Positions 3,163 through 24,923 of a stretch of DNA of 24,923 nt are shown here, one piece after another. A program made the translations under genes and the position numbers. The stretch comes from a virus. The notes below the pieces were generated by a model. The model was given only the letters and a program-made list of their open reading frames with translations. It did no database searches and was not told where the DNA came from. The stretch is taken from positions 1-24,923 of IMG/VR virus record IMGVR_UViG_3300034198_003717, one strand, 5' to 3'. Position 1 is the stretch's first letter; every line of letters begins with the position of its first letter.

Positions 3163-3425
3163 TTGTAATTCCTCGCTCACACAGGTTTGGGAAGTTACAG
3201 ATAGCGATTTACGACTTTCCAAACGTGGGCGACATTTTGCCGCGTCACACCCATACGGTGGACAATGCTCACATAACGATTGTGGCAAAGGGCAAGATTC
3301 GTGTTACGGCTGGAGACTGGACACAGGATGTTGAGTGTGGTAAGGTGCTGGATCTACCGGCTAATCAGGAACACGAGTTCATAGCGATAGAGAACGATAG
3401 CAGAATAGTTAATATAGTAAAATGA
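3159..3425 (+). CDS. Small cupin-domain protein
   Basis: 88 residues forming a single small cupin barrel. Metal-ligand candidates are His30 and His32 in PRHTHT, His38, and a later histidine in the NQEHEF segment near residue 72. The strand AHITIVAKGKIRV is the usual GxI/V cupin core. A similar cupin core (HTNILVKGKIKF) is the N-terminal domain of the cupin-SET protein at 7163-8029, so the phage carries two related cupins. It overlaps both neighbours by ATGA and precedes the glycosyltransferase gene, which is consistent with a role in sugar or small-molecule modification. The substrate is unknown. Confidence 0.75.
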   Translation: MIVIPRSHRFGKLQIAIYDFPNVGDILPRHTHTVDNAHITIVAKGKIRVTAGDWTQDVECGKVLDLPANQEHEFIAIENDSRIVNIVK

Positions 3426-5158
3426 TCTACATCCATTGTTTAGCCGTGCCACACACGGCCACAAACGCAGAATATATGGCTTGTGCCTTCACCCAGAAGG
3501 TACGTAAATTCTTGACGATGTTCAAGGATTCTAAAAAGTATCGAACCATACACTATGGCCATCCGGATTCGGTGACGGACGCACACGAGCATGTGGACGT
3601 CATAACGACTGAAATCCAAGAACAGGCTTATGGCAAGCAAGATGACAAGACCAAATTCTTTCAATATGGCTACGATGATGTGTGTGTTAACACGTTTAAC
3701 CGGAACGCAGCCGCCGAAATTCTGAAACGCAAACGCTATGGTGACATTGTGCTCGCGTTCTGGGGGACGGCCAAAGCGGCATGCGATGCAGCGAATAAAG
3801 ATAATGATTTAATCGTCGTCGAGCCCGGGATCGGGTGCGGATATGCATTCGCTCCATTTAGATGTTATGAAAGCCATCCGTTAAAGGCGGCATTTATTGG
3901 GACTGACAAAGTCAGCAGATGTGCACCGGAATGGTATTGGAGAGTGGTGCCGAATTATTTTGATGTTAGAGATTTTAAACTCGGACACCAACGGAAGCCC
4001 TACGCCATAGCTCTCGGGCGCATCGGAACTAACAAGGGTATTCACATAGCGGTTGATGCGTGTAAACGGGCGGGAATACGCCTCGTGATTGCAGGACAGG
4101 GCAGCCCCGCTGACGTAGGTTACTCCGAATGGCCAGATCACGTAGATTATATCGGCTACGCGGACACCGAGCTCCGTAAGAAGTTATTATCCGAAGCATC
4201 GTTTGGATTCCTGCTGTCCACATATTGGGAACCGTTCGGCGGCACGGTCATTGAAATGATGTTGTCAGGGTGCGTTCCAATCGTGTCCGACGTCGGGGCC
4301 ATGACCGAATATGTCGTAGATGGTGTTAACGGATTTCGTTGCAACTCAATGGGAGACATCCTGAGGGCCATACGGTTGGTGAACTCGATTAACCGCGATC
4401 GAATGGCTAAGTTCGCCGAAGCCAACTTCTCCTTGGATGCCGTCCGTCCGAAATTTGAGCGAGCATTCGACGATTTTAGCGACGTGTTCACTGCGGGCGG
4501 ATGGTATGAGGATCATAACAGACCGATGTTGACCGGTGTCGGGCTTGATTATAGAGCGTTGTATGTGGATACAGCCAAGAAGACGCCGAATGACTTCGAG
4601 AAATCGTTTTGGGGCAATTGCACCAACACCGTTAACGAAGAGATCAAGCAATATGAATATGCCAGGTGGATGGGGCTCGGTGACAACTTTTTGGAGGGTG
4701 ATGGCAAAAAGATCCTAGACATCGGGGGTGGTCCAGTATCGATGCTGCTTAAAGTAAATAAACCGATTTCTGGTTCCACTGTGGTCGACCCATTGGGGTA
4801 TCCGGAATGGGTGTTGGCCAGATATGCATCCGAGGGTATTAAATATATCCAGGCTAAAGGTGAGGATGAAGATTGGGTACGGGATAATATCTATGATGAG
4901 GTGTGGATATATAATTGTCTGCAGCATGTGGATGATCCGGCGGCCATCATCAGAAATGCATTCAGATGTGCTCCGATATTGAGGATATTTGAATGGATCA
5001 ATTTTCCAGCATATGAGGGACATCCTCAAGCGTTGACTCAAGAAAAGATGGAAAAATGGATTGGGCACGCTGGGAACGTCGTTACTTACAACCAGAATGG
5101 TTGCCATGGGGATGCCTTTTATGGTATTTTTGACCGTGCATTATGCAAATCCCAATAA
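3422..5158 (+). CDS. Fusion of GT4-type glycosyltransferase and SAM-dependent methyltransferase
   Basis: 578 residues with two domains. Residues about 1-360 are a GT-B glycosyltransferase. The donor-binding half has the ALGRIGTNKGIH strand, the FLLSTYWEPFGGTVIEM segment with the E-x7-E pair (Glu270, Glu278) and GCVPIVSDVGAM, typical of family GT4. Residues about 400-575 are a class I methyltransferase with motif I KILDIGGGPVSML (Asp433) and later YNCLQHVDDP, in the place of the usual post-I and motif IV region. The gene lies between the fibre genes and the gp10-like gene and overlaps the next start by 16 bases. Likely roles are glycosylation plus methylation of virion or fibre proteins, host surface sugar or DNA; the sequence does not decide which. 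No membrane segment is seen. Confidence 0.85.
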   Translation: MIYIHCLAVPHTATNAEYMACAFTQKVRKFLTMFKDSKKYRTIHYGHPDSVTDAHEHVDVITTEIQEQAYGKQDDKTKFFQYGYDDVCVNTFNRNAAAEILKRKRYGDIVLAFWGTAKAACDAANKDNDLIVVEPGIGCGYAFAPFRCYESHPLKAAFIGTDKVSRCAPEWYWRVVPNYFDVRDFKLGHQRKPYAIALGRIGTNKGIHIAVDACKRAGIRLVIAGQGSPADVGYSEWPDHVDYIGYADTELRKKLLSEASFGFLLSTYWEPFGGTVIEMMLSGCVPIVSDVGAMTEYVVDGVNGFRCNSMGDILRAIRLVNSINRDRMAKFAEANFSLDAVRPKFERAFDDFSDVFTAGGWYEDHNRPMLTGVGLDYRALYVDTAKKTPNDFEKSFWGNCTNTVNEEIKQYEYARWMGLGDNFLEGDGKKILDIGGGPVSMLLKVNKPISGSTVVDPLGYPEWVLARYASEGIKYIQAKGEDEDWVRDNIYDEVWIYNCLQHVDDPAAIIRNAFRCAPILRIFEWINFPAYEGHPQALTQEKMEKWIGHAGNVVTYNQNGCHGDAFYGIFDRALCKSQ

Positions 5159-6837: not shown

Positions 6838-7166
6838 CGGTCACGATTCAAAACCTAATACCGGCTAAGCAGGCTGAAAACACGGGTACTACTCAGTATA
6901 CGTCTTCAGGAAAAACCATAATTGACAAGTTTACTGCTACTAATACCAGCGCTGGCGCGGCTACACTTACCGTTTACCTAGTATCCTCCGGAGGAACTGC
7001 GGGAGCAAGCAACACGGTGCTATCCAGCCGATCAATTAGCGCCGGTGCGACATACACCTGCCCTGAAATTGTCGGCCAAGTATTGGAAAACGCCGGATTC
7101 ATTGCTACTTTGGCCGACACGGCTGCAGCCATCACCATCCGAGCTTCTGGGAGGATCATAACATGA
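6834..7166 (+). CDS. Small beta-rich virion-associated protein, unknown function
   Basis: 110 residues, rich in Thr, Ala, Ser and Ile, with alternating strands (KTIIDKFTATNTSAG, ATLTVYLVS, AAAITIRASGRI) that suggest a single beta-sandwich domain. Similar small proteins occur next to head-tail joining genes in many phages, where they are usually annotated as hypothetical or decoration-like. It overlaps both neighbours by ATGA, so it is probably co-translated with the upstream small protein and the downstream cupin-SET protein. No catalytic motif is visible. A structural role is inferred from context and composition. Confidence 0.65.
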   Translation: MTVTIQNLIPAKQAENTGTTQYTSSGKTIIDKFTATNTSAGAATLTVYLVSSGGTAGASNTVLSSRSISAGATYTCPEIVGQVLENAGFIATLADTAAAITIRASGRIIT

Positions 7167-8029
7167 GCGACAACCTTTCAGTAAACGCGGGCATATCGAG
7201 CATTTCAACGTCCGGGTTAGATGACCTTGACAGCTTAATCAACGAATATCCGCAGGCCGAATGCCCAGTACGCCATCATTTCGGGCCCGGCATCTACATC
7301 AGAGAGGTGTTAATCCCGGCAGGTACTCTGATCCTAGGCCATAAACATAAAAACCCCCACACTAATATTTTGGTGAAGGGTAAAATCAAATTCTTGAACG
7401 ATGATGGTAACGTGATCGAACTAACGGGCCCATCCGTCATAATAAGCGCGTCAGGTCGAAAACTCGCTTTTGCGATGGAAGATACGATCTGGCAAAACGT
7501 TTATGCCACTGAAGAGCGAGATGTTACGAAATTAGAGGAAATGCTCTTGGATAAGAGTGCCACATGGCTTGAATGTAAAGCCAGGATGTTTCAGCTGGAG
7601 TCTCACCTACATGAGGAGGACCGGGTAGACTTTTTAAAAGCCATCGCCGAGTATGGGTTGGATGCCGACTACGTACACGAGATGTCGGTCAATGAATCGG
7701 ACATGTGCCCATTACCAGATGAGATTACGCCCAAAGCTCTTTTAAGACCGTCCCCGATTCATGGCGTCGGGATGTTTGCCCCCTCTTTCATCCCCAAAGG
7801 CACCATCATCGGACCTGCCAGAATCAATGGCAAAAGGACATTATTTGGTCGCTATCTAAACCATTCAAAGAGCCCGAACTCATGCTTCGTCTATGATGAA
7901 GAACAGAAAATTATCCAGGTGCTTGCAATTCGCGACATCCATGGATGCCATGGTGGTGATGATGGCGAAGAGGTTACCGTATGCTACCGTCAGGCTTTGA
8001 ACTTAACCTTAAATATTGACAAATCATGA
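7163..8029 (+). CDS. Cupin-SET domain fusion protein
   Basis: 288 residues with two recognisable domains. Residues about 30-115 form a cupin-like barrel with His60, His62 and His66 in GHKHKNPHTNI and the strand LVKGKIKF, close to the small cupin at 3159-3425. Residues about 190-280 form a compact SET domain: RPSPIHGVGMFAPSFIPKG (the usual S.IHG.G.FA start), the signature GRYLNHSKSPN (Asn233-His234) and a C-terminal EVTVCYR corresponding to the usual EeltydY. SET enzymes methylate protein lysines using SAM. The middle (120-180) is a helical linker. It lies between ATGA overlaps in the structural module, so a virion or host protein is a plausible substrate. The last Tyr of the SET motif is shifted or changed (VCYR), so activity is uncertain. 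Confidence 0.82.
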   Translation: MSDNLSVNAGISSISTSGLDDLDSLINEYPQAECPVRHHFGPGIYIREVLIPAGTLILGHKHKNPHTNILVKGKIKFLNDDGNVIELTGPSVIISASGRKLAFAMEDTIWQNVYATEERDVTKLEEMLLDKSATWLECKARMFQLESHLHEEDRVDFLKAIAEYGLDADYVHEMSVNESDMCPLPDEITPKALLRPSPIHGVGMFAPSFIPKGTIIGPARINGKRTLFGRYLNHSKSPNSCFVYDEEQKIIQVLAIRDIHGCHGGDDGEEVTVCYRQALNLTLNIDKS

Positions 8030-14619: not shown

Positions 14620-16185
14620 ATGAGTATTAAAAATAACGTAAAACGGTACAGCCAGCTGTTCAGAGGAAACCTTAGATCGTACGGCGAGTGGGATCCTAAA
14701 AAGACCTCTCAGTCGATGCGAACTATCAAAGAACCTGTTACCCACAGGCAATTTGAACAGCATATTAACGGGGTTATGGGTCTTGGTATGGTCCCCATTC
14801 GGGATGATGGGTTGTGTTGGTTCGGGGCTATAGACGTAGACAATCATGGCAAGGATGAGGATCTTGATCTGGTCTCAATAGAGGCCAAGGTTAAATCCGG
14901 AAACTTGCCCCTGACCGTGTGTAGGTCGAAGTCCGGGGGTGCACATCTTTACCTATTCGGTCGGGAGCCACTCCGGGCCGACATGGTTAAGACCATCCTG
15001 ACCAAATGGATGAGCGAGCTTAAACTGGAGGGGTCGGACTGTGTGTTCCCCAAGCAGACTAAGCTCGCGTTGGACTCGAAGGGGCAGCGTCCGCTGGGCA
15101 ACTGGATCAATCTGCCATACTTTGGCGGAGATAATACCGATAGGTATGCGCTGGACAATGGGGCTCGGTGTCCATTTGATCTGTTCTTGGATAACGCCGA
15201 AAATGGAGCCATCACCCAGGAGCAGCTGGAAGAGTTGTTCGGCAGCGAACATAGCGACGCTCCTCCCTGCATACGGAAGGCGTTGAAGGAGGGAATCCCT
15301 GAGGGTGGGCGCAATGACGCGTTGTTCCACCTGACCATATACAATAAGAAACGCCACCCGGACGGGGCTAGAGAGATGTCGCATGCGATGCAGGCAGAAA
15401 TATTCCCCTCGCCGCTGCCATTTCCTGAAGCGGACACGGTAATTAAATCCGCCCTTAAGAAGAGCTACGGGTACTCGTGCAAGAAGGAGCCTTGGGTTAG
15501 TTGGTGTGACCGGGAGGCATGTCGCAAGTGCAAGTATGGTATTACTGATGCCGACTACACAGCGTTAGCCAACGAGGCCAAGCTTCCCATGTTCACGGAT
15601 CTGGTTAAGTACCTGAATACCGAACCCGTAATGTGGGAGATGAAGATGAACGGGTCTTCCGTCACTATGACGACCGACGAATTGGTTGATTACCGGGCGG
15701 TCCGGATCAAGGCCATGGAAAAGATCAACGTCGTCCTGCCATCTACGATCAAACCCGCGCAATGGTCGGATGAGATTTTAGCCGAGCTCATGAAGAATGT
15801 GCGTATAGAGGAGGCCCCGGTGGAGTCGTCACCCGGGGGTGTCCTTGCGCTCAGGCTGGACGAGTTCCTGCGTAAGGCTGATCTGACGTCTGCCGGAGAC
15901 GATTCTTCTGACAAGGAAGGGTTGCTCAGAGGTATGCCGGTCGTGCAGATATATCAGGGGTTAAAGGTCATCATGTTCCGCAGCATTGATTACGAGGATT
16001 TTCTGAAGCGGACCCGTACTGAAGTTCCAAGGAATAAAAATTTGTGGCATAGGGCCAATAGGGACATGGGGGTGACGTTTGCACGGGTCCGGGTAAAGCA
16101 GCAAGTAATCCAAGTGTGGATGGTGCCGTTCACGAAGATCTGTGATGTTAAGTTCGATCAGGTTAACCTCGATTTAGAATATTAG
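14620..16185 (+). CDS. Archaeo-eukaryotic-type primase (PrimPol / TOTE-type) with cysteine cluster
   Basis: 521 residues. The N-terminal domain (about 30-190) has the AEP-type catalytic motifs: GAIDVDNHG with Asp72 and Asp74 for metal binding, SKSGGAHLYLF with His109, and GNWINLPYF, similar to primase domains seen in phages and TOTE-type systems. A GGRNDALFHL helix and a Cys287, Cys296, Cys301, Cys304 cluster (GYSC, SWC, EACRKC) form a probable zinc-binding module. The C-terminal 200 residues are not recognised. It is the first gene of the replication operon and would make primers for the downstream family A polymerase. It stops at TAG one base before the helicase start. A short ATG-TCA-TGA overlaps the start from 14615. 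Confidence 0.82.
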   Translation: MSIKNNVKRYSQLFRGNLRSYGEWDPKKTSQSMRTIKEPVTHRQFEQHINGVMGLGMVPIRDDGLCWFGAIDVDNHGKDEDLDLVSIEAKVKSGNLPLTVCRSKSGGAHLYLFGREPLRADMVKTILTKWMSELKLEGSDCVFPKQTKLALDSKGQRPLGNWINLPYFGGDNTDRYALDNGARCPFDLFLDNAENGAITQEQLEELFGSEHSDAPPCIRKALKEGIPEGGRNDALFHLTIYNKKRHPDGAREMSHAMQAEIFPSPLPFPEADTVIKSALKKSYGYSCKKEPWVSWCDREACRKCKYGITDADYTALANEAKLPMFTDLVKYLNTEPVMWEMKMNGSSVTMTTDELVDYRAVRIKAMEKINVVLPSTIKPAQWSDEILAELMKNVRIEEAPVESSPGGVLALRLDEFLRKADLTSAGDDSSDKEGLLRGMPVVQIYQGLKVIMFRSIDYEDFLKRTRTEVPRNKNLWHRANRDMGVTFARVRVKQQVIQVWMVPFTKICDVKFDQVNLDLEY

Positions 16186-16186
16186 T

Positions 16187-17449
16187 ATGATTACGATAGC
16201 GTTTGATGCAAAAAAGAATAGGTTCCATATCACCAGTCCGTACAACATGTCGGACACGATCCGGGATATCCCGAATCGCAGGTGGGACGGCAAGAACAGG
16301 TTGTGGTCGGTGCCAGCCATTAAGTCCAATGTGGAGTATATTCATAAGTACATGAATTTGGGGACAGGCTTCGTAGGTAATGCCAAAGAAGTATTGTGCG
16401 AAATGGTAGCGAAGTTTCAAGCAAAGAGGAACGGTGCCGTTGAAGCTAAGTTCCCATCCTGGTATCCGTTCAAGACCGAGCCCAGGCAGAAGCAGATGGA
16501 GGCCCTGCACAAAGTGTATGATATGGACTCAGTAGCGCTGTTTATGGACATGCGCACCGGTAAGACTAAAGTGATCATTGACTTGGCCTCAGCTAAGCGT
16601 ATGCAGGCTCACGTGGAGCGTGTCTTGATCGTTTGTCCGCTTTCAATTCGCAAAAACTGGATCCGGGAGATTGATACACACGCACCATTCCCTATCGATG
16701 CTTATCTTCTTGACACGTCCAAGCCTAAAGACTTTGCAAAGTGGATAAATACCAAGCACGATTTTAAATGGCTGCTCGTCGGGGTGGAGTCTCTGGCGGC
16801 GGGCTCGGCCATAAATTATGCAGAGGAGTTTGTCAACTCGTCCATGAAAACGATGTGCGTGGTAGACGAGTCTTCTAAAATCAAAGGCCATTCCGCCAAC
16901 CGAGCGAAGAATTGCGTAAAGCTTGGCCGCAGGTCTAGTCATAGGGTGATCATGACGGGTACTCCGATATCGCATGGACCTATGGATCTGTTCATGCAAT
17001 TCGAATTTCTCGACCCTGACATCATCGGGATCGGCGATTTCTACTCGTTTAAAAAGCGCTATGCCATCATGGGGGGCTACGAGGACAAGCAGATCGTGGG
17101 GTATCAGAACATCGACGAGCTCATGGAGATGCTCGAGCCATTCGTGTTTCAAGTACGCAAGGATGAAGTGTTTCCGGATGCGCCGAAGAAGGTATATTTG
17201 CGGCGTGAGACCCAGTTAACTGACAGGCAAAAAGCGTTATACAGGCAGGTTAAGCGAGAGGGGCTCGCTGAGCTGGGCGACCAAACGATGATAGTGCAGA
17301 ATGCGTTGGAGAAGATGCTGCGGCTTCAGGAAATCACGGGTGGCTCCATATCGTTTAAGACTGACTTGGAGACCGAGGCTCTCACCAAGAAAAAGTATGT
17401 CCGGCAGCGGATCGAGGGTGGTAATCCCAAGTTGTCGGAACTTCTCTAG
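16187..17449 (+). CDS. SNF2-family helicase, N-terminal part (HARP-like domain and RecA lobe 1); gene split by in-frame TAG
   Basis: 420 residues before TAG at 17447-17449. Residues about 1-55 resemble a HARP-type domain (IPNRRWDGKNRLWSVP). Then come the lobe 1 motifs: RQKQMEALHKVYDM, Walker A MDMRTGKTK (Lys126), LIVCPLSIRKNW, the DESSKIKG box (Asp227-Glu228, in place of DEAH), and VIMTGTPISHGPMDLF. Residues 300-415 are the SNF2 linker, ending NPKLSELL. The same frame continues after the TAG with lobe 2, so the two ORFs were or are one gene of about 573 codons. SNF2 enzymes are ATP-driven DNA translocases; branch migration or fork processing in replication is likely. Alone, this fragment would lack half of its ATPase site. 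Confidence 0.85.
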   Translation: MITIAFDAKKNRFHITSPYNMSDTIRDIPNRRWDGKNRLWSVPAIKSNVEYIHKYMNLGTGFVGNAKEVLCEMVAKFQAKRNGAVEAKFPSWYPFKTEPRQKQMEALHKVYDMDSVALFMDMRTGKTKVIIDLASAKRMQAHVERVLIVCPLSIRKNWIREIDTHAPFPIDAYLLDTSKPKDFAKWINTKHDFKWLLVGVESLAAGSAINYAEEFVNSSMKTMCVVDESSKIKGHSANRAKNCVKLGRRSSHRVIMTGTPISHGPMDLFMQFEFLDPDIIGIGDFYSFKKRYAIMGGYEDKQIVGYQNIDELMEMLEPFVFQVRKDEVFPDAPKKVYLRRETQLTDRQKALYRQVKREGLAELGDQTMIVQNALEKMLRLQEITGGSISFKTDLETEALTKKKYVRQRIEGGNPKLSELL

Positions 17450-17908
17450 GTGGTTGAGGAATACGTGGGATCGACTATCATCTGGTGTGCATTCCGCGAA
17501 GAGATCGCCATCGTGAGTGAGGCCCTGCGTAAGGAGTATGGTGAAGATCAAGTGGTCGAGTTGCACGGAGACGTGGACGAGGCCGCCCGAGATTACAATG
17601 TCAACACGGCCTTTCAAAGCGGGGCAGCCCGGTTTTTGGTCGGGAATACCGCTACGGGCGGCATGGGGCTGACGATGCACAAAGCGGAGAATGAGATCTA
17701 TTTTTCCAATTCGTTCAATTACACCGACCGTGAGCAGTCCGAGGAGCGGGCGTTCGGTCCGCATAAGAAAAATGGTACGGTGATCATCGATATCGTAGCC
17801 GAGAACACCGTTGATGAACATATCCTGGAGGCGTTAACTCAGAAAAAAGACGTCTCGGAATATGTGCGGTCGACTATTGACACGCTAAAAGTAAAACTCT
17901 ATGAATAA
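17450..17908 (+). CDS. SNF2-family helicase, C-terminal part (RecA lobe 2), downstream of the TAG
   Basis: 152 residues if initiated at the GTG immediately after TAG. No clear ribosome-binding site precedes it. Lobe 2 motifs are present: VGSTIIWCAFREE (motif IV region), VVELHGDVDEAARD, FLVGNTATGGMGLTMHKA (motif V) and NYTDREQSEERAFG (motif VI), then TVIIDIVAENTVDEHI. Motif VI is unusual. The family normally reads RAHRIGQ, here RAFGPHK, so the second (finger) arginine is missing. Either the product is a separately translated subunit, or it is joined to lobe 1 by TAG readthrough, or the gene is degraded, or the stop is a sequence error. The open frame and intact fold signature argue against old decay. 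Confidence 0.75.
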   Translation: MVEEYVGSTIIWCAFREEIAIVSEALRKEYGEDQVVELHGDVDEAARDYNVNTAFQSGAARFLVGNTATGGMGLTMHKAENEIYFSNSFNYTDREQSEERAFGPHKKNGTVIIDIVAENTVDEHILEALTQKKDVSEYVRSTIDTLKVKLYE

Positions 17909-18302
17909 GAATATTGACACGCGTATCGGGGCCATGTTTAATGGCGGTTCAATAAACAATAGCGCCATGACATCGAAGGTTTTCGTAACACAGGAGCAGG
18001 AAAAGCTCAATTACAGTCCTGCTGAGGAATACGGCGAGGTCGTGTTTATTACGCGCAACGAATTTAGCGTCATAAAGGCGAGTCTCCGCAACGAGGCTTT
18101 GATAGATGAAATCGCCTCCAAGCTTAAAAGTTTTGACCCCTTGGTTGACTACATCACAGTCTCCGGGAGCCCGGTGGTGGCAGCCACCGTGTTCTTGGTC
18201 CTGGGATTGCGGAAGATCAAGTCGGTCAATATGCTCCGCTGGAGCAACCGTGATTGCGTGTATCATCCGATCACGATTCAGTTAACACCAAACCAAATAT
18301 AG
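17901..18302 (+). CDS. Conserved-looking phage protein, unknown function
   Basis: 133 residues. After a polar N-terminus there are YGEVVFITRNEFSVIKASLR, then EIASKLKSFDPLVDYITVSGSPVVAATVFLVLGL and KIKSVNMLRWSNRDCVYHPITI. The last part alternates strand, helix and strand in a small alpha/beta fold. The hydrophobic PVVAATVFLVLG stretch is more likely a buried helix than a membrane segment. Its ATG overlaps the helicase end by 8 bases. It ends in TAG two bases before the next ATG. It sits in a replication operon, so a role there is likely, but no family function is known to me. Confidence 0.75.
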   Translation: MNKNIDTRIGAMFNGGSINNSAMTSKVFVTQEQEKLNYSPAEEYGEVVFITRNEFSVIKASLRNEALIDEIASKLKSFDPLVDYITVSGSPVVAATVFLVLGLRKIKSVNMLRWSNRDCVYHPITIQLTPNQI

Positions 18303-18304
18303 AC

Positions 18305-18751
18305 ATGAGCGAAGAAACACATCCGAACGATACATTTAAAGCGCATTATGATTCACTCGAAACGGTGGACGTCATCAAGGAGATGGACAAGTTGCGCAAG
18401 GCTAAAGAAGACGCAGAGGCTGAGCTGAAAACCATTAACGCCGAGTACGACTACGTCAGGCACATCTACATCCCCGAGCTTTTCGAGCGTGAGGGTATCG
18501 ATAATCTTAAGGTCACCGACGTGGGCCGGGTTTCGCTGACTGCCGACCTCCGGGTTAGCGTTCTCAGCGAGAACAAGGATCGGGTGTTTGAGTTCTTCGA
18601 CATGCTAGGCAAAGGTGACATCGTGACGAAGACAATCAACGCGAGCACGCTCAAAGCCGTCGTCAAGTCGATGATTTTGAATGGTGATGAGGTACCGGAG
18701 GATCTTATTAAAGTGACTCCGTTCACGCGGGCCTCCATCACCAAACGCTAA
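18305..18751 (+). CDS. Coiled-coil replication-module protein, unknown function
   Basis: 148 residues counted from ATG 18305 (MSEETHPNDTF). An upstream in-frame ATG at 18254 lies inside the previous gene and is less likely. Residues about 20-55 form a heptad-rich coiled coil (VIKEMDKLRKAKEDAEAEL), followed by IPELFEREGIDNLKVTDVGRVSL and a helical C-terminal half (DRVFEFFDMLGKGD, ASTLKAVVKSMIL). Proteins of this layout often lie directly before the SSB-like gene in phage replication operons, where function is not established. No catalytic residues are visible. Confidence 0.75.
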   Translation: MSEETHPNDTFKAHYDSLETVDVIKEMDKLRKAKEDAEAELKTINAEYDYVRHIYIPELFEREGIDNLKVTDVGRVSLTADLRVSVLSENKDRVFEFFDMLGKGDIVTKTINASTLKAVVKSMILNGDEVPEDLIKVTPFTRASITKR

Positions 18752-18795
18752 TTTCCCCAGAACAGAAACCAACAACAACAAGTAGAAACCAACAT
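18752..18795 (+). promoter_or_regulatory. G-poor, CA-rich leader without Shine-Dalgarno, with an 11-bp direct repeat
   Basis: The 44 bases before the SSB-like start are almost free of G and contain AGAAACCAACA twice (18764-18774 and 18784-18794), separated by CAACAAGT-type sequence. Such unstructured CA-rich leaders can drive efficient SD-independent initiation. That would suit an abundant DNA-binding protein. This is inference. Confidence 0.5.
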
Positions 18796-19539
18796 ATGAG
18801 CAAGTTAGTAAAAGCACCAAGCAACGAAATGTTTCAGGCCGATTGCCCGGATTTCCTTGCGAACAACAAGGGTAACCGTGGTACGGAAAACGTCGGAGCC
18901 GAGGATCTTCTGATTCCACGGCTGGAACTCGTGCAGGACTTGTCGCCTTGCCGCAAGAAGAACGACCAGGCCTACATTCCGGGAGCCGATGGTGGGATGT
19001 TGTACAACAACGTCACCCGTCAACTCTACGGGCCCGAGGTGTTACTCGTCCCGGTGTACTTCAAGAAGGAGTTCCTTATTTGGAAAGATCGTCAGAAGGG
19101 TGGCGGTTTCCGGGGCGTGCACACCAGCCTTGCCGATGCCGAAGATGCGTTGTCGCATCTGGAAGACGGGTCAGATTGCGAGATTATGGACACCGCTCAA
19201 CACTTCTGCCTGCTCGTCCAGCCAGAAACGGGTAAGGTCGAAGAGATCGTGATCTCGATGTCCAAATCCAAGGCCAAGGTGTCGAGGAAGTTTAACTCGC
19301 TTATCCGGATGGCCGGTGGTGACTCCTTCAGCCGGGTCTACCGCTTGTCCACCGTGAGTGAGAAGAACAACAAGAATCAGGACTTCTACAATCTGACCAT
19401 CGCTGCAGCGGGCTTTCCCACTAAGGCGTTGTACGATGCGGCGGTGAAGCTCTACGAGGGTATCTCCTCCGGGGCTGTCGCGATCGATCGGAAGACCGAT
19501 TCGTTTAGCTCTGAAGTCGAGTCTGACCGGGAATATTAA
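18796..19539 (+). CDS. Probable single-stranded DNA-binding protein
   Basis: 247 residues. The middle is beta-rich with aromatic residues suitable for nucleic acid stacking (QLYGPEVLLVPVYFKKEFLIW, DTAQHFCLLVQ, KAKVSRKFNSLIRMAGG, QDFYNLTIAAAGFP). The C-terminus is a short acidic tail (SSEVESDREY) like those of phage SSBs such as T7 gp2.5, which use the tail to contact polymerase and helicase. Position between primase/helicase genes and the UvrD-like helicase and polymerase supports this. It has no direct OB-fold signature I can name, so the call rests on context, composition and acidic tail. An unusual CA-rich leader precedes it. Confidence 0.6.
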   Translation: MSKLVKAPSNEMFQADCPDFLANNKGNRGTENVGAEDLLIPRLELVQDLSPCRKKNDQAYIPGADGGMLYNNVTRQLYGPEVLLVPVYFKKEFLIWKDRQKGGGFRGVHTSLADAEDALSHLEDGSDCEIMDTAQHFCLLVQPETGKVEEIVISMSKSKAKVSRKFNSLIRMAGGDSFSRVYRLSTVSEKNNKNQDFYNLTIAAAGFPTKALYDAAVKLYEGISSGAVAIDRKTDSFSSEVESDREY

Positions 19540-19544
19540 TCGCC

Positions 19545-20978
19545 GTGAGACGGTTTAAGAGTACTGTGATCTATGGCCCTCCGGGGTGCGGCAAGACGAC
19601 TAACCTCGTGCACAGGCTCTCAGAATCCGTCGAAATATGGGGTGGCTCTAAGGTCCTGTTCATCAGCTTCACGAAAGCAGCCGCCGCTGAAGCGGTGAGC
19701 AGGACCGGGGCCATTCCGATCGCCAAAAATGCCGTAGGTACGCTGCACAGTCTTATGTTCCGGTTGTGTAACCTTACGAGCGAGGCGGTGGTAGATAAGG
19801 AGAAGCTGGCTAAGTTTGGAGCCAAGACCGGGTTCCGATTCAAGGGCAACAGTAACGACGCCGGGGATGACATGGAGACGGGAGACCATTACCTTGCCGT
19901 GATTGCACGGGCAACCAACAAGGAGACGAAGCTTGCAGCCGAATATCACGACATGGGTCGTCCGGGCAACTGGGCGGAATTCGAATTTTTCACAAAGTCC
20001 TACGCCGACTGGAAGTACGCCAACGGTTACGTCGACTTCAACGATATGCTTGAGCGTTACGTGGCGGATCCGCAGCCGCACGGAGCCAACGCAATCTACA
20101 TCGATGAAGCCCAGGATCTCACCAACCTCCAATGGCGGGTAGTAAGTCATCTGGTATCACATGATACCGTCAGGCAGGTGGTCGTGGCCGGGGATGATGA
20201 TCAAGCGGTGTTTGAGTGGGCCGGGGCTAACCCGCAGGGGATGCTCAGGTTTGAAGAGGCATCGATGGCTGATCGAGTCGTGTTGAAGCAGTCTTGGCGG
20301 GTCCCGGTCAAGGCGCATAAGATGGCATTAGATTTGATTAGCCGGGTTAAGAATCGAGTGGTGAAGGAGTACCTGCCGATGCAGCATGATGGTGAAGTGC
20401 GGAGGTTGGGGTCTTTCAACCCGTCTACGATCGACAGGGGCGCAGATATCCTTATTTTATGCAGATCATTCCACACTAAAACTGCGATCGAGCAGGAACT
20501 GATCAGACATTTAATCCCTTACAAGAACGAGGGCAGCATGCCCGGGCTGTTTGATTCTCGGATTGCCAATGCTGTTCGGTCTTTCCTTAAGCTCTACGGT
20601 ACGGAGGATCTTTCAAAGGTAGATCTTAATCGGATATTGGCGGTGGCCGATGATCGTACGAAGGCTGATCTCAGGAGTGGAAATTTCGATGCGGTTCGCA
20701 AGCGCGGATACATCCGGTCGTTGAAGATCCCGGTTCATCAGATAGACTTCTTTAAGTCGGCAGATCTTTCAAGACCAGCGAACATTCGGCTGAGCACAAT
20801 CCATTCCGCTAAAGGCCGGGAGGCGGATCATGTAATTTTAAATACGGGCCTGACCATGAGAACCTTGAGGTCCATGGATTTAAACCCGGACGCAGAGGCG
20901 CGAGTGTGGTACGTGGGCCTGACCCGTACCAAAAACAAGTTAGACATATTAGAGGGCGACATGGCTTATAGAGTATGA
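19545..20978 (+). CDS. UvrD/Rep-like superfamily 1 DNA helicase
   Basis: 477 residues from a GTG start that places the Walker A close to the N-terminus. All SF1A motifs can be read: I GPPGCGKTT (Lys17), Ia LFISFTKAAAAEA, GTLHSL, II IYIDEAQDLT, III VVVAGDDDQAVFEWAGA, IV LKQSWRVP, V LSTIHSAKGREADHVIL, VI EARVWYVGLTRTK. It is shorter than UvrD (about 720 residues), lacking most of the 1B/2B insertions, as in compact phage SF1 helicases. It would unwind DNA 3'-5' at the fork or aid repair, and its stop overlaps the polymerase ATG (ATGA), implying coupled expression. Confidence 0.92.
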   Translation: MRRFKSTVIYGPPGCGKTTNLVHRLSESVEIWGGSKVLFISFTKAAAAEAVSRTGAIPIAKNAVGTLHSLMFRLCNLTSEAVVDKEKLAKFGAKTGFRFKGNSNDAGDDMETGDHYLAVIARATNKETKLAAEYHDMGRPGNWAEFEFFTKSYADWKYANGYVDFNDMLERYVADPQPHGANAIYIDEAQDLTNLQWRVVSHLVSHDTVRQVVVAGDDDQAVFEWAGANPQGMLRFEEASMADRVVLKQSWRVPVKAHKMALDLISRVKNRVVKEYLPMQHDGEVRRLGSFNPSTIDRGADILILCRSFHTKTAIEQELIRHLIPYKNEGSMPGLFDSRIANAVRSFLKLYGTEDLSKVDLNRILAVADDRTKADLRSGNFDAVRKRGYIRSLKIPVHQIDFFKSADLSRPANIRLSTIHSAKGREADHVILNTGLTMRTLRSMDLNPDAEARVWYVGLTRTKNKLDILEGDMAYRV

Positions 20979-22810
20979 AATATCCTAGACTTAGAGAATA
21001 TCCTTACATAGCGTTTGATTGTGAGACAACCGGACTGTTTTGGTGGAAAGACGAGATCTTTGGCATCAGCGTGTCTTGCCCGGACGGTATCGATCATTAC
21101 TGGGACGTCCGGTCTGAACCCGAAGCGTTGGCCTTCCTCAGGGAGGAAATTCCTCATTGTCGCCGGGTGGTATGTCACAACGCGAAGTTCGACTGGCATT
21201 TCGCTCGGGAGATGGGCGTTAATTTCCCGGAATCGAACGTGGATTGTACGCTTATCCGGGCGGCGCTGATAGATGAGCATCTTTTGAATTACAACCTCGA
21301 CTATCTAGGAACCAAGTATGTCGGAGTGGGGAAGGACGACATCATTCAGGAGTTGGCCGATATTTTCGGGGGCAAGGCCGAAAAGAAGGTGCAGATGGCC
21401 AATCTTCACCGGGCCCCGGTACGAATCGTCGGAAAGTATGCGATGCAGGATACCCGCACCACGCTTAAGCTCTGGGAGTGGCAGGAGCAGGAAATCGAGA
21501 GTCAGGATCTCCATAAAGTGTGTGATCTGGAGCGGTCGCTGCTACCTGTCCTAGTCGACCTTGAATTTGATGGTGTAAGGGTTAACGTATCGCAGGCTGA
21601 GGCTGTGGTCCCAGAGCTCGACCGAAAAGTGTCTGAGATTCAGATGGAGTTGGACGACATCGCCGGGTTTGAGGTCAACGTCAATTCCGGCCCGATGATG
21701 GCTAAATTATTTCAGCCGAGTCAGCGGGCGGATGGTGTCTGGACGCTGACGGATGGTACGCCAGCTGAGGCTACGCCCGGGGGCAAGGCTTCCATTGGGG
21801 CTGCGACGCTCAGACAGATGAAGCATCCCGCCGCCGCTCTGATTCTTCAACTCCGCAAGATCATTAAAACCCGGGATACGTTCATCAAAGGCCATATCCT
21901 AAACTATCATCACAACGGGGTCATTCATTGCAATTTCAATCAGACCAGATCTGACAATGACCTGGGTACGGGTACGGGTCGGCTGAGCGTAAATGCCCCG
22001 GCCCTGCAGCAGATCCACAAGCGTGACAAGGACATTGCGGGCATCGTTCGATCTTTGTTTTTGCCCGATTTTAAGACGCACGATTGGGTCTGCAACGACT
22101 GGGCTCAGATGGATTTCCGCGTGTTTGCACATTACGTCAACGATCCGCGTATTTTAGAAATCTACAGGCAGAATCCGGATGCGGATTTTCATCAGATGGC
22201 TGCCGATCTCACCGGGTTGCCCCGGTCGCCGAGGTTCGCGGGTGACGCTAATGCCAAGCAGATTAATCTCGGGCTTGTGTTCGGCATGGGCCAGGGTAAA
22301 CTTGCGGCTGAGATGAATCTGCCGTACACGGTTGAGAGAAATGAAAAGACGGGCAAGGACAGGCTGGTGCCGGGACCGGAGGCTATGTCGGTATTCGAGA
22401 AGTATCATAGCGCCATTCCCGGGGTCAAGGAGTTGCTCCAATCGGCCAGTGCCAAGGCGTCGTCCCGGGGGTTCATACGGACGATCATGGGCAGGCGAAT
22501 CCGGTTTCCTAAGGGGCAGGCTGTTCACAAGGCGGGCGGGTTAATTTTTCAGGGGTCGGCTGCCGACGCTCTTAAAGTGAAGCTGGTTGAGTTACATAAA
22601 TTCCTTAAAGGGACGCAGTCCGGAGCAAGGTTATTACTCAACGTTCACGATGAATTTGATATGTCGGTACCTCGCGGTGATGCGAAGACGCTCGCCGAGA
22701 TTAACCGCATTCTAACACATTTTGATGGGATACTCACCCCCATCAAATTCCGAGTACCCGTCCGGACGGACCAAGGTGTCGGACCCAACTGGTGGGAGGC
22801 TAGCAAATAA
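20975..22810 (+). CDS. dpoZ: Family A DNA polymerase with 3'-5' exonuclease, DpoZ-like
   Basis: 611 residues, with no 5'-3' exonuclease domain. Exonuclease motifs are complete: Asp15/Glu17 (FDCETTG), Asp73 (HNAKFD) and Tyr155/Asp159 (YAMQD). Polymerase motifs: A, Asp375 in NDWAQMDFRVFAHYV; B, Lys428 in ANAKQINLGLVFGMG; C, His558-Asp559-Glu560 in LNVHDEFD. Compared with E. coli Pol I, the steric-gate Glu710 position is Asp380, Arg754 aligns to Asp424, Phe762 to Leu432 and Tyr766 to Phe436. It lies directly upstream of purZ, the arrangement expected of DpoZ, the polymerase that favours 2-aminoadenine in Z-genome phages. Family A is certain. DpoZ identity follows from the gene neighbourhood. Confidence 0.9.
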   Translation: MKYPRLREYPYIAFDCETTGLFWWKDEIFGISVSCPDGIDHYWDVRSEPEALAFLREEIPHCRRVVCHNAKFDWHFAREMGVNFPESNVDCTLIRAALIDEHLLNYNLDYLGTKYVGVGKDDIIQELADIFGGKAEKKVQMANLHRAPVRIVGKYAMQDTRTTLKLWEWQEQEIESQDLHKVCDLERSLLPVLVDLEFDGVRVNVSQAEAVVPELDRKVSEIQMELDDIAGFEVNVNSGPMMAKLFQPSQRADGVWTLTDGTPAEATPGGKASIGAATLRQMKHPAAALILQLRKIIKTRDTFIKGHILNYHHNGVIHCNFNQTRSDNDLGTGTGRLSVNAPALQQIHKRDKDIAGIVRSLFLPDFKTHDWVCNDWAQMDFRVFAHYVNDPRILEIYRQNPDADFHQMAADLTGLPRSPRFAGDANAKQINLGLVFGMGQGKLAAEMNLPYTVERNEKTGKDRLVPGPEAMSVFEKYHSAIPGVKELLQSASAKASSRGFIRTIMGRRIRFPKGQAVHKAGGLIFQGSAADALKVKLVELHKFLKGTQSGARLLLNVHDEFDMSVPRGDAKTLAEINRILTHFDGILTPIKFRVPVRTDQGVGPNWWEASK

Positions 22811-22821
22811 CATAACGTATA

Positions 22822-23877
22822 ATGAAAAAAATAACAGCGATCATAGACTTGCAGTTTGGCAGCACCGGCAAAGGACTGCTGGCCGGGTATCTGGCACAGA
22901 ATAGACAACCGGATACCATTGTGACGGCGTGGGCGGCCAACGCGGGGCACACATTCATCGACGCCCATGGCAACAAGTTTGTTCATACCATGCTGGCTAA
23001 CGGCATCGTGTCACCCAATCTCAAGCGTATTCTTATCGGGCCCGGATCGATATTGGATCTCGACAACCTTTTTCGGGAGATCATGATCAACCAGGAGTAT
23101 TTGCAAAATGTACATATCTTCGTCCATGAAAATGCTGCGGTGATCACCGGCAAGCATAGGGTCGAGGAAGCAAATGGCATGACGGCCATAGGCTCCACCA
23201 AAAAGGGATGCGGAGCAGCTGCAATTCAGCGGATCAGGCGAAATCCGGATGATTTAAACACCGTCAAGGAACTCTTAAAACATCATGCGGTGGCCCGGCA
23301 CGTCAACGTCGTGGGGCCGATGGGATACGCTTGGATGCTGGATGAGGGAGAAAACATCATGATCGAAGGGGCTCAGGGCTATTCGCTGTCAATGTATCAT
23401 GGATTCTACCCTTACACGACGTCGAGGGATGTATCCACCGCTCAGCTGCTGGCAGATTGCGGTGTCCCGGTGTCACCGGATTATCCTGTGGAGGTCATCG
23501 GAACGGCACGCACTTACCCGATCCGGGTGGCGAACAGGTTTGACCACAATGGTAAGCAGGTCGGATGGTCCGGGCCCAATTACCTCGATCAGATTGAGAC
23601 CTCGTTTAAAGATATCGGGCAGGAGATCGAGCTTACTACCGTAACCAAGCTACCGCGACGGATCTTCACGTTCTCACTATCCCAGGTTAAACATGCCGTG
23701 CGTCAATGCGGGGTTAAAGAGATCTTTCTTAATTTTTGCAATTACATGCAGCCCGACGAATTGAAAGCGCTCATTAAATCCATCAACCGCAACACCGGGG
23801 CCAGGGTCCGATGGACCGGGCACGGGGCCACCGTAAACGACGTTGTGGACGTTGACGCTCATCCCGAGTTATTCTGA
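22822..23877 (+). CDS. purZ: PurZ, aminodeoxyadenylosuccinate synthase (2-aminoadenine pathway)
   Basis: 351 residues, shorter than bacterial PurA (about 430) and right for PurZ. The GTP/ATP loop reads IDLQFGSTGKG. Where PurA has GDEGKGK with the catalytic Asp13, here Ser14 and Thr15 take the Asp-Glu positions, the diagnostic change that lets PurZ use dGMP instead of IMP. Other conserved parts are NAGHTF (His43), the GSTKKGCGAA segment, EGAQGYSLS, YPYTTSRD, IGTARTYPIRV, ELTTVTKLPRR and LNFCNYM, matching characterised phage PurZ. It condenses aspartate with dGMP. Host PurB and kinases then give dZTP. It starts 11 bases after the polymerase and is followed at once by the MazZ-like gene. No Shine-Dalgarno is visible. 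Confidence 0.95.
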   Translation: MKKITAIIDLQFGSTGKGLLAGYLAQNRQPDTIVTAWAANAGHTFIDAHGNKFVHTMLANGIVSPNLKRILIGPGSILDLDNLFREIMINQEYLQNVHIFVHENAAVITGKHRVEEANGMTAIGSTKKGCGAAAIQRIRRNPDDLNTVKELLKHHAVARHVNVVGPMGYAWMLDEGENIMIEGAQGYSLSMYHGFYPYTTSRDVSTAQLLADCGVPVSPDYPVEVIGTARTYPIRVANRFDHNGKQVGWSGPNYLDQIETSFKDIGQEIELTTVTKLPRRIFTFSLSQVKHAVRQCGVKEIFLNFCNYMQPDELKALIKSINRNTGARVRWTGHGATVNDVVDVDAHPELF

Positions 23878-23878
23878 T

Positions 23879-24322
23879 ATGGAGATTAAAAAATTAACCA
23901 AAAGCATCGTGGAATGGGCGGATTCCGTCTTTCCGGACCGTAAACCCGAGGCAGCTCTGTTGAAGCTGTTTGAGGAAGTGGGGGAGCTTGTCAAGGATCC
24001 GCGTAGCCCGGGTGAGTACGCCGATATCTGCATCATGTTGTTCGATCTGGCCGATATGCACAAGATTGACTTGGCACAAGCGATCAAGGACAAAATGGAG
24101 GTAAACAGATCCAGACAATGGGTGGTCACCAAGACCGGCACCATGCAGCACGAGGACCATCCGTTGGAGGGTACCTGTACCATGCGGCAAGCATATCTCT
24201 ACGGTATGCGAGACGCCCGGGAGGGCAACAACAGGAACCCCGGAAACAATGTGCCGCCGAAATACGTTGAGTGGTACAATCGGGGGTATGACATGGCAGC
24301 CGGGGAATGTGATGCCGACTGA
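23879..24322 (+). CDS. mazZ: MazZ-like MazG-family dGTP/dATP pyrophosphohydrolase with extra C-terminal domain
   Basis: 147 residues counted from ATG 23879, one base after the purZ stop; the ATG at 23843 lies inside purZ and is unlikely. The all-alpha NTP-pyrophosphohydrolase motif is clear: LFEEVGELVKD with Glu33 and Glu36, then EYADICIMLFDLADM with Glu46 and Asp49, and the family ending MEVNRSRQW. In Z-genome phages MazZ turns dGTP into dGMP, the PurZ substrate, and can also lower dATP. The last 45 or so residues (MRQAYLYGMRDAREGNN to KYVEWYNRGYDMAAGE) look like an added small domain resembling ribosome modulation factor (AY..G..A...G, W..G...A). That extra domain is an inference. Confidence 0.88.
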   Translation: MEIKKLTKSIVEWADSVFPDRKPEAALLKLFEEVGELVKDPRSPGEYADICIMLFDLADMHKIDLAQAIKDKMEVNRSRQWVVTKTGTMQHEDHPLEGTCTMRQAYLYGMRDAREGNNRNPGNNVPPKYVEWYNRGYDMAAGECDAD

Positions 24323-24323
24323 T

Positions 24324-24599
24324 ATGGACCTTCAAAAATATCTTGAAGAGCATCACCCGGATGAACCCATCGCCACACCCGACGGGTTGGACGATGCATT
24401 CATCGGCGTGGCGAGGCAGGCAGGTGGTCTCACCGTAGCCGTGTATGATCGTGAGAAATGCGTCGAGATTCTTGCCCGGGACATGAGTGTGGAGGACGCG
24501 GAGGAATACTTCGCGTTTAATACCGAATGTGCTTACGTAGGAATCAACACGCCCATGTTCCTAAGCAGGCCGGAACCGGAGGAGCACGATGTTGTTTAA
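24324..24599 (+). CDS. Small conserved phage protein, unknown function
   Basis: 91 residues from ATG 24324 (MDLQKYLEEHHPDEP); the ATG at 24249 lies inside the MazZ-like gene. The core (DDAFIGVARQAGGLTVAVYDREKCVEIL, MSVEDAEEYFAFNTECAYVGINTPMF) resembles a widespread family of small phage and bacterial proteins of unknown function. It starts one base after the MazZ-like stop and overlaps the next gene by 11 bases, so it is part of the same operon. No catalytic motif is visible. Confidence 0.75.
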   Translation: MDLQKYLEEHHPDEPIATPDGLDDAFIGVARQAGGLTVAVYDREKCVEILARDMSVEDAEEYFAFNTECAYVGINTPMFLSRPEPEEHDVV

Positions 24600-24855
24600 A
24601 CAGGTTCCGACCGACAGGCAGGCTATCGCTCTGTGGCTGTATGCCACCGAGATGCAAACCGCAGAGATCGCAAAACACCTCGGAATGTCGAAGGGTGCGA
24701 CGGCAGAAATACTCAGATCCGCTCAGGAGCTGGCCCGGGCTCACAGGATCTGGTTCATCAGTACGAAGGGCAAAGAAGAAGTTCCTCCAAATACGGGGAG
24801 CGGAATGTCATATCTAAAACAATTAGCGTCGGATGCAGGATTAAAGACAAAATGA
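24589..24855 (+). CDS. Small helix-turn-helix protein
   Basis: 88 residues. Residues about 23-43 (QTAEIAKHLGMSKGATAEIL) form a textbook helix-turn-helix of the sigma-region-4/LuxR type, followed by a charged helix and a lysine-rich C-terminus. A strong GGAGGAG ribosome site lies 4 bases before ATG, in contrast to most genes nearby. It overlaps both neighbours. It probably binds DNA, as a regulator of the operon or a DNA-associated factor between mazZ and the HD gene. The target is unknown, and the TGTWCGC array at 14431-14584 is one candidate to test. Confidence 0.7.
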   Translation: MLFKQVPTDRQAIALWLYATEMQTAEIAKHLGMSKGATAEILRSAQELARAHRIWFISTKGKEEVPPNTGSGMSYLKQLASDAGLKTK

Positions 24856-24923
24856 ATATAACTGAATTAATGAGAACGGGGCACGTGAAACGATGGCACA
24901 TCGTACGCGTCGCCAGAGAGCAA
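24852..24923 (+). CDS. datZ: N-terminus of an HD-domain phosphohydrolase, probably DatZ (truncated by window end)
   Basis: Only 24 codons are inside the window (MNITELMRTGHVKRWHIVRV then AREQ). The pattern GHVKRWHIVR.AREQ is the opening of YfbR/DatZ-type HD phosphohydrolases, in which it precedes the first metal-binding His of the AEHS segment. In Z-genome phages DatZ is a dATP triphosphohydrolase that removes dATP so the polymerase uses dZTP. The start overlaps the previous stop (ATGA). The catalytic His-Asp residues are beyond the edge, so DatZ is inferred from these residues plus the adjacent dpoZ-purZ-mazZ genes. Confidence 0.65.
   Translation, partial: MNITELMRTGHVKRWHIVRVAREQ

What the first reader, a model, noticed from the sequence alone, without database searches (positions are those of the whole stretch)
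20975..24923. Near-complete 2-aminoadenine (Z-genome) cassette: DpoZ-like polymerase, PurZ, MazZ-like enzyme and probable DatZ
Seen: a family A polymerase with exonuclease, PurZ with Ser14 in the GSTGKG loop, a MazG-type enzyme with Glu33/Glu36/Glu46/Asp49, and the opening of an HD phosphohydrolase, all in one tightly packed operon. Known: these four functions make and select dZTP and remove dATP in Z-genome phages. Inference: this phage replaces adenine with 2-aminoadenine. The pathway is described. This genome would be a further podovirus-type member, with a TOTE-type primase, a SNF2 protein and two extra small genes inside the cassette.
Basis: partly seen in the sequence, partly recalled or inferred. 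Interest (0 to 1): 0.9.

Follow-up and report, generated by a model that had tools for sequence, protein, structure and literature searches.

The report
Phage cassette replacing adenine with 2-aminoadenine
This uncultured phage carries the known set of genes with which some phages swap the DNA letter A for 2-aminoadenine (Z); it is a well-supported further member of a described group, not a new kind of system.

Summary
Window 20975-24923 encodes, on one strand and closely packed, DpoZ (NCBIfam DpoZ_1, 812 bits against a cut-off of 500), PurZ (NCBIfam PurZ, 349 against 300), a MazZ-1/DUF550 enzyme whose best solved match is S-2L MazZ (7ody), two small ORFs, and the first 24 codons of DatZ, cut by the contig end. 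Signature residues fit: PurZ Ser14; MazZ Glu33/Glu36/Glu46/Asp49, Ile52, Asp56, Arg79; DpoZ Phe436 (phiVC8 F459), Leu432, Gly522 and the helix-O insertion. The one exception, S-2L PurZ Gln308, is Asn in every other phage aligned. PurZ falls in the PurZ clade, apart from PurA (100/100). Sixty-two IMG/VR contigs share PurZ and, where long enough, the order uvrD-dpoZ-purZ-mazZ-datZ; 58 continue into an HD-type DatZ matching the window's 24 residues. Acinetobacter phage SH-Ab 15497, which has Z-DNA, has the same gene order, including AEP primase and SNF2 helicase. Most likely the phage replaces adenine with 2-aminoadenine; sequence alone cannot show this. What is new is minor: a P22-like (podovirus) virion module not found in the other Z contigs or phages searched, a MazZ C-terminal extension, and two cargo ORFs. 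New member of a known kind.

The parts
20975..22810 (+). DpoZ: family A DNA polymerase with 3'-5' exonuclease, phiVC8-like clade
   Evidence: NCBIfam DpoZ_1 811.7 bits, cut-off 500; PDB 7pbk phiVC8 DpoZ E 2.8e-130; exo D15/E17/D73, R417, L432, F436, G522, helix-O insertion
22822..23877 (+). PurZ: N6-succino-2-amino-deoxyadenylate synthase
   Evidence: NCBIfam PurZ 349 bits, cut-off 300; PDB 7odx S-2L PurZ E 1.4e-88; Ser14; in the PurZ clade
23879..24322 (+). MazZ-1 (DUF550) (d)GTP pyrophosphohydrolase, with a ~55-aa C-terminal extension
   Evidence: PF04447 E 3.9e-10; PDB 7ody S-2L MazZ E 3.7e-16; metal ligands and guanine determinants conserved
24324..24599 (+). 91-aa ORF of phrog_13182, unknown function, cargo between mazZ and datZ
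   Evidence: phrog_13182 E 4.5e-21; relatives in 37 phage records and 23 IMG/VR contigs, none of the latter with a detected PurZ, DpoZ or DatZ nearby
24589..24855 (+). 88-aa helix-turn-helix ORF, weak match to HTH DNA-binding proteins
   Evidence: Pfam HTH hits below cut-off; phrog_7061 E 8.4e-6; no match in the 62 related PurZ loci
24852..24923 (+). First 24 codons of DatZ (dATP triphosphohydrolase), cut by the contig end
   Evidence: phrog_7076 E 1.1e-3; up to 16/24 identical to DatZ of relatives that carry the HD motif
19545..20978 (+). UvrD/PcrA-like helicase directly upstream of dpoZ, part of the same conserved replication block
   Evidence: PF00580 E 6e-23; same position in 46 of the related loci and in SH-Ab 15497
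17901..19539 (+). Three Pam3 gp32/gp33/gp34-like genes of the same block
   Evidence: PF23992, PF23984, PF23977; same order in related loci
16187..17908 (+). SNF2-type helicase, interrupted by an in-frame TAG at 17447-17449
   Evidence: phrog_62 in both halves; relatives read through with E, S or M at that place
14620..16185 (+). AEP (TOTE-type) primase with PriCT-1 domain
   Evidence: PF22548 E 1.1e-15, PF08708; homologues in 8 of 9 Z contigs tested, in SH-Ab 15497 and in PMBT28

Best explanation
The block is the DpoZ-type Z cassette of an uncultured tailed phage related in its replication module to Acinetobacter phage SH-Ab 15497. Inferred mechanism: MazZ cuts dGTP to dGMP; PurZ joins aspartate to dGMP using ATP (or dATP) to give dSMP; host PurB and kinases carry this through dZMP to dZTP; DatZ strips dATP of its triphosphate; DpoZ, primed by the AEP primase, prefers dZTP over dATP. 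The result is DNA with 2-aminoadenine in place of adenine, which resists many host nucleases. Shown here: family membership, signature residues, gene order, tree position. Inferred: enzyme activities, completeness of DatZ, and actual Z in virions.
For: NCBIfam DpoZ and PurZ above the curated cut-offs. Best solved matches are the characterised Z-phage enzymes 7odx, 6fko, 7ody, 7pbk. Signature residues conserved in all three proteins, apart from S-2L PurZ Q308, as listed in PMC8599892 and PMC8342488. PurZ tree: PurA split 100/100; window in a 22-row clade with SH-Ab 15497, 97/98. Conserved order in 62 IMG/VR contigs and in SH-Ab 15497. DatZ complete with HD motif in relatives, phrog_7076.
Against: DatZ is only 24 residues here, so a broken or absent dATPase is not excluded. 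MazZ substrate (dGTP only, or dGTP and dATP) cannot be told from sequence. The contig is a 24.9-kb fragment of unknown host; whether the host supplies PurB and dZMP kinase activity is unknown. No chemical measurement exists.
Confidence: 0.91

Rival explanations
1. A relic or partly inactive Z cassette: the proteins descend from Z-phage enzymes, but the phage now makes ordinary or mixed A/Z DNA, for instance because DatZ is broken beyond the contig end.
For: DatZ is seen for 24 codons only; the SNF2 gene of the same module has an in-frame stop.
Against: DpoZ, PurZ and MazZ are intact, full length and keep the catalytic residues examined. The visible DatZ start is as conserved as that of complete relatives.
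Confidence: 0.06
2. An adenylosuccinate synthetase of PurA type with an ordinary phage polymerase and a housekeeping MazG: nucleotide salvage, not base replacement.
For: PurZ belongs to the Pfam adenylosuccinate synthetase family; DpoZ-like residues such as L455 occur in some non-Z phage polymerases (PMC8599892).
Against: Ser14 in place of the PurA catalytic Asp, which all six PurA sequences in the tree carry as GDEGKG; PurA excluded at 100/100; polymerase over the DpoZ cut-off by 300 bits; conserved neighbourhood with DatZ.
Confidence: 0.02
3. The window is a chimeric assembly that joins a P22-like virion region to a Z-phage replication region.
For: No P22-type stabilisation protein (phrog_578) in any of the other Z contigs or isolate records searched.
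Against: All genes lie on one strand, and module swapping is normal in phages. It does not affect the cassette itself. Many of the searched contigs are fragments.
Confidence: 0.05

Closest known systems
Acinetobacter phage SH-Ab 15497 Z cassette (MG674163)
   Same: Gene order AEP primase, SF2/SNF2 helicase, UvrD/PcrA, DpoZ, PurZ, MazZ (DUF550), DatZ; DpoZ 47%, PurZ 50% identical
   Different: SH-Ab 15497 has an SSB gene between dpoZ and purZ and an N-terminal DUF5664 domain fused to MazZ; the window has neither, and has two small ORFs between mazZ and datZ and a different, P22-like virion module
Cyanophage S-2L Z-cluster (MW334946)
   Same: PurZ, MazZ-1, DatZ in that order; MazZ best solved match 7ody; PurZ best solved match 7odx
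   Different: S-2L replicates with PrimPol and lacks DpoZ (PMC8342488); the window has DpoZ plus an AEP primase. S-2L PurZ Q308 is Asn307 in the window
Vibrio phage phiVC8 cassette (NC_027118), a Z-podovirus
   Same: DpoZ of the same clade, PurZ, DatZ; short-tailed phage
   Different: phiVC8 uses MazZ-2 (PMC8342488) and another primase and gene order; PurZ 43% identical
Salmonella phage PMBT28
   Same: Same replication module with DpoZ, PurZ, MazZ, DatZ
   Different: N-terminal fusion on MazZ; different virion module
IMG/VR contigs 3300042468_001294, 3300033067_000389, 3300036770_004850
   Same: Nearest PurZ, 65-66% identical; the gene order from uvrD to datZ is conserved where the contig covers it
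   Different: No orf91 or HTH gene between mazZ and datZ; no phrog_578

Membership tests
PurZ | Serine replaces the PurA catalytic aspartate | tested here: met
   Ser14 in GSTGKG; all six PurA rows read GDEGKG
PurZ | Groups with PurZ, not PurA | tested here: met
   IQ-TREE, PurA split 100/100; window with SH-Ab 15497 in a 22-row clade 97/98
PurZ | S-2L PurZ-specific substrate contacts T273 and Q308 | tested here: inconclusive
   T273 is met (T272); Q308 is Asn307 in the window, as in all other rows but S-2L, so it does not discriminate
PurZ | Uses dGMP and ATP, makes dSMP | not testable with these tools
   needs an enzyme assay
DpoZ (phiVC8-like) | Profile above the curated cut-off | tested here: met
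   NF038380 811.7 bits, cut-off 500
DpoZ (phiVC8-like) | Phe in place of the steric-gate Tyr, L455, G548 and helix-O insertion | tested here: met
   F436, L432, G522, insertion 2 (criteria from PMC8599892)
DpoZ (phiVC8-like) | Prefers dZTP over dATP | not testable with these tools
   needs a primer-extension assay
MazZ-1 / DUF550 | Conserved metal ligands and guanine determinants (E35, E38, E50, D53, I56, D60, R83 of S-2L) | tested here: met
   E33, E36, E46, D49, I52, D56, R79 (criteria from PMC8342488)
DatZ | HD-domain motif AEH...HDxxE | not testable with these tools
   the contig ends after 24 codons; 64 of the 66 other loci compared carry both motifs
DatZ | N-terminal sequence and place downstream of mazZ | tested here: met
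   phrog_7076 hit; up to 16/24 identities; gene order
Z-genome phage | Virion DNA contains 2-aminoadenine instead of adenine | not testable with these tools
   needs LC-MS of nucleosides

The most novel reading that the evidence does not exclude
A P22-like podovirus has taken up an SH-Ab 15497-type Z replication module, a pairing not found in any other Z contig or phage searched here, and its MazZ carries an added C-terminal domain that may tune or localise dGTP hydrolysis.
Probability: 0.5. Interest if true: 0.35.

Novelty: new member of a known kind. Interest (0 to 1): 0.3.

Why it matters
It adds a further lineage to the phages that appear to replace adenine, and supports the view that the Z module moves between virion types. 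The set of 62 related contigs gives a wider natural sample of DpoZ, PurZ, MazZ and DatZ for enzyme work than the isolates do. It does not change the understanding of the pathway.

Tried and rejected
Phmmer of the 24-residue DatZ start against the PDB gave nothing: too short. Pfam on the MazZ C-terminal extension and on the 91-aa ORF gave nothing. The extension looks by eye like small ribosome-modulation-factor-type phage domains, and L003 has a similar one, but no profile supports this, so it is not claimed. The idea that the 91-aa and HTH genes belong to the Z pathway was rejected: neither occurs in the 62 related PurZ loci, and the mazZ-datZ gap in relatives ranges from -17 to 2196 bp with unrelated small ORFs. 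Recoding of TAG as a reason for the SNF2 stop is unlikely: other genes here end in TAG and no tRNA was found. A single-sequence AlphaFold model of the L048 protein in the mazZ position was too poor to use (mean pLDDT 57). The close pairing of S-2L PurZ with the window in the tree has weak support (93/61) and a long branch, and is not used.

Full report
What is there. The window is a complete IMG/VR record of 24923 bases, most likely a genome fragment. The long plausible genes lie on the + strand. The last 4 kb hold dpoZ (20975-22810), purZ (22822-23877), mazZ (23879-24322), a 91-aa ORF (24324-24599), an 88-aa HTH ORF (24589-24855) and the first 24 codons of datZ (24852-24923). Gaps and overlaps are a few bases.

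Family tests. The polymerase scores 811.7 bits against NCBIfam DpoZ_1 (cut-off 500), and the synthetase 349 bits against NCBIfam PurZ (cut-off 300). PHROGs names the synthetase family '2-aminooxy adenylosuccinate synthetase', E 3.8e-87. The best solved matches are the characterised Z-phage enzymes: 7odx, E 1e-88, and 6fko for PurZ; 7ody for MazZ, E 4e-16; 7pbk for DpoZ, E 3e-130, against 5e-38 for the next entry. That these chains come from S-2L and phiVC8 follows from the papers read and from the matching sequences in those phage records. The DatZ stub hits phrog_7076 'dATP triphosphohydrolase' at E 1e-3 with all 24 residues.

Residues. Published criteria were taken from PMC8599892 and PMC8342488 and mapped by alignment to phiVC8 and S-2L. 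DpoZ: exonuclease D15/E17/D73; R417; L432; [quoted passage not shown] G522; and the helix-O insertion. The phiVC8 S583 position is Glu here, as in SH-Ab 15497. MazZ: E33, E36, E46, D49 (metal), I52 and D56 (guanine), R79. PurZ: S14, which replaces the catalytic Asp of PurA, and T272; S-2L's substrate-contacting Q308 is N307 here, as in all other rows, so that position is particular to S-2L.

Tree. A PMSF tree of 45 sequences, with E. coli PurA and five PurA from metagenome-assembled genomes as outgroup, separates PurA from the rest with 100/100. The window sits in a starred clade of 7, and in one of 22 with SH-Ab 15497 and PMBT28 (97/98).

Neighbourhood. Sixty-two IMG/VR contigs hold a PurZ relative, the nearest 66% identical. 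Local tblastn finds MazZ in 61, the DatZ start in 58 and DpoZ in 55, in one order on one strand; many contigs are truncated, so these are lower bounds. All 58 DatZ frames contain an HD dyad; a stricter test for AEH plus HDxxE is met by 64 of the 66 other loci compared, isolates included. Five full-length DatZ from relatives hit phrog_7076 at E 1e-25 to 1e-34. Upstream, the UvrD-like helicase and the Pam3 gp32-34-like genes are also conserved. SH-Ab 15497, whose Z-DNA and pathway are reported in PMC12884076 and PMC8599892, has the same order, and the AEP primase is shared too.

Cargo. The 91-aa ORF belongs to a small-protein family scattered over unrelated phages; in the 23 contigs found, no PurZ, DpoZ or DatZ lies near it. 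The HTH ORF has no match in related Z loci. The mazZ-datZ gap varies from -17 to 2196 bp among relatives, so this is a place where small genes come and go.

Virion module. The left half encodes a phage stabilisation protein (PF11134), DNA-ejection (weakly P22-gp7-like) and DNA-transfer proteins, and collagen-like fibres. The nearest record, MW202867, has the P22 coat, portal and tail-accessory genes. This supports the podovirus reading, though terminase, portal and coat are not in the window. No phrog_578 member was found in the other Z contigs or isolate records searched, many of which are fragments.

Mechanism. Inferred from PMC8342488, PMC8599892 and PMC12884076: MazZ gives dGMP, PurZ gives dSMP, host enzymes give dZTP, DatZ removes dATP, DpoZ prefers dZTP. 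None of these activities was measured here.

Verdict. The pathway is known and well populated, so the finding is a new member of a known kind.

Noticed in passing
window 17447-17449: In-frame TAG splits the SNF2 helicase between its two lobes, with a GTG directly after it in the same frame; relatives carry E, S or M there (L114 E). Mutation, sequencing error or a true two-piece protein.
   Followed up: partly
window 24146-24319: MazZ has a C-terminal extension of about 55 aa without a Pfam match; L003 (and perhaps L006) has a similar one.
   Followed up: partly
L048 6131-6406: In this Z contig no MazZ match is found; a 91-aa, predicted all-helical ORF (phrog_2831) sits tightly between purZ and datZ. 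It may be a non-orthologous MazZ replacement; the structure model was too poor to tell.
   Followed up: partly
L004 6665-6973: A second, different MazG protein (PF03819, phrog_715) lies between mazZ and datZ in this relative.
   Followed up: no
window 7163-8029: Protein with a C-terminal SET-domain match (PF00856, E 2.5e-7) among the virion genes.
   Followed up: no
window 3422-5158: Fusion of a group 1 glycosyltransferase and a methyltransferase domain inside the virion module.
   Followed up: no
L077, L079, L080, L084, L085: PurZ-like proteins with GSTGKG in contigs of bacterial metagenome-assembled genomes, possibly binned phage contigs or prophages.
   Followed up: no
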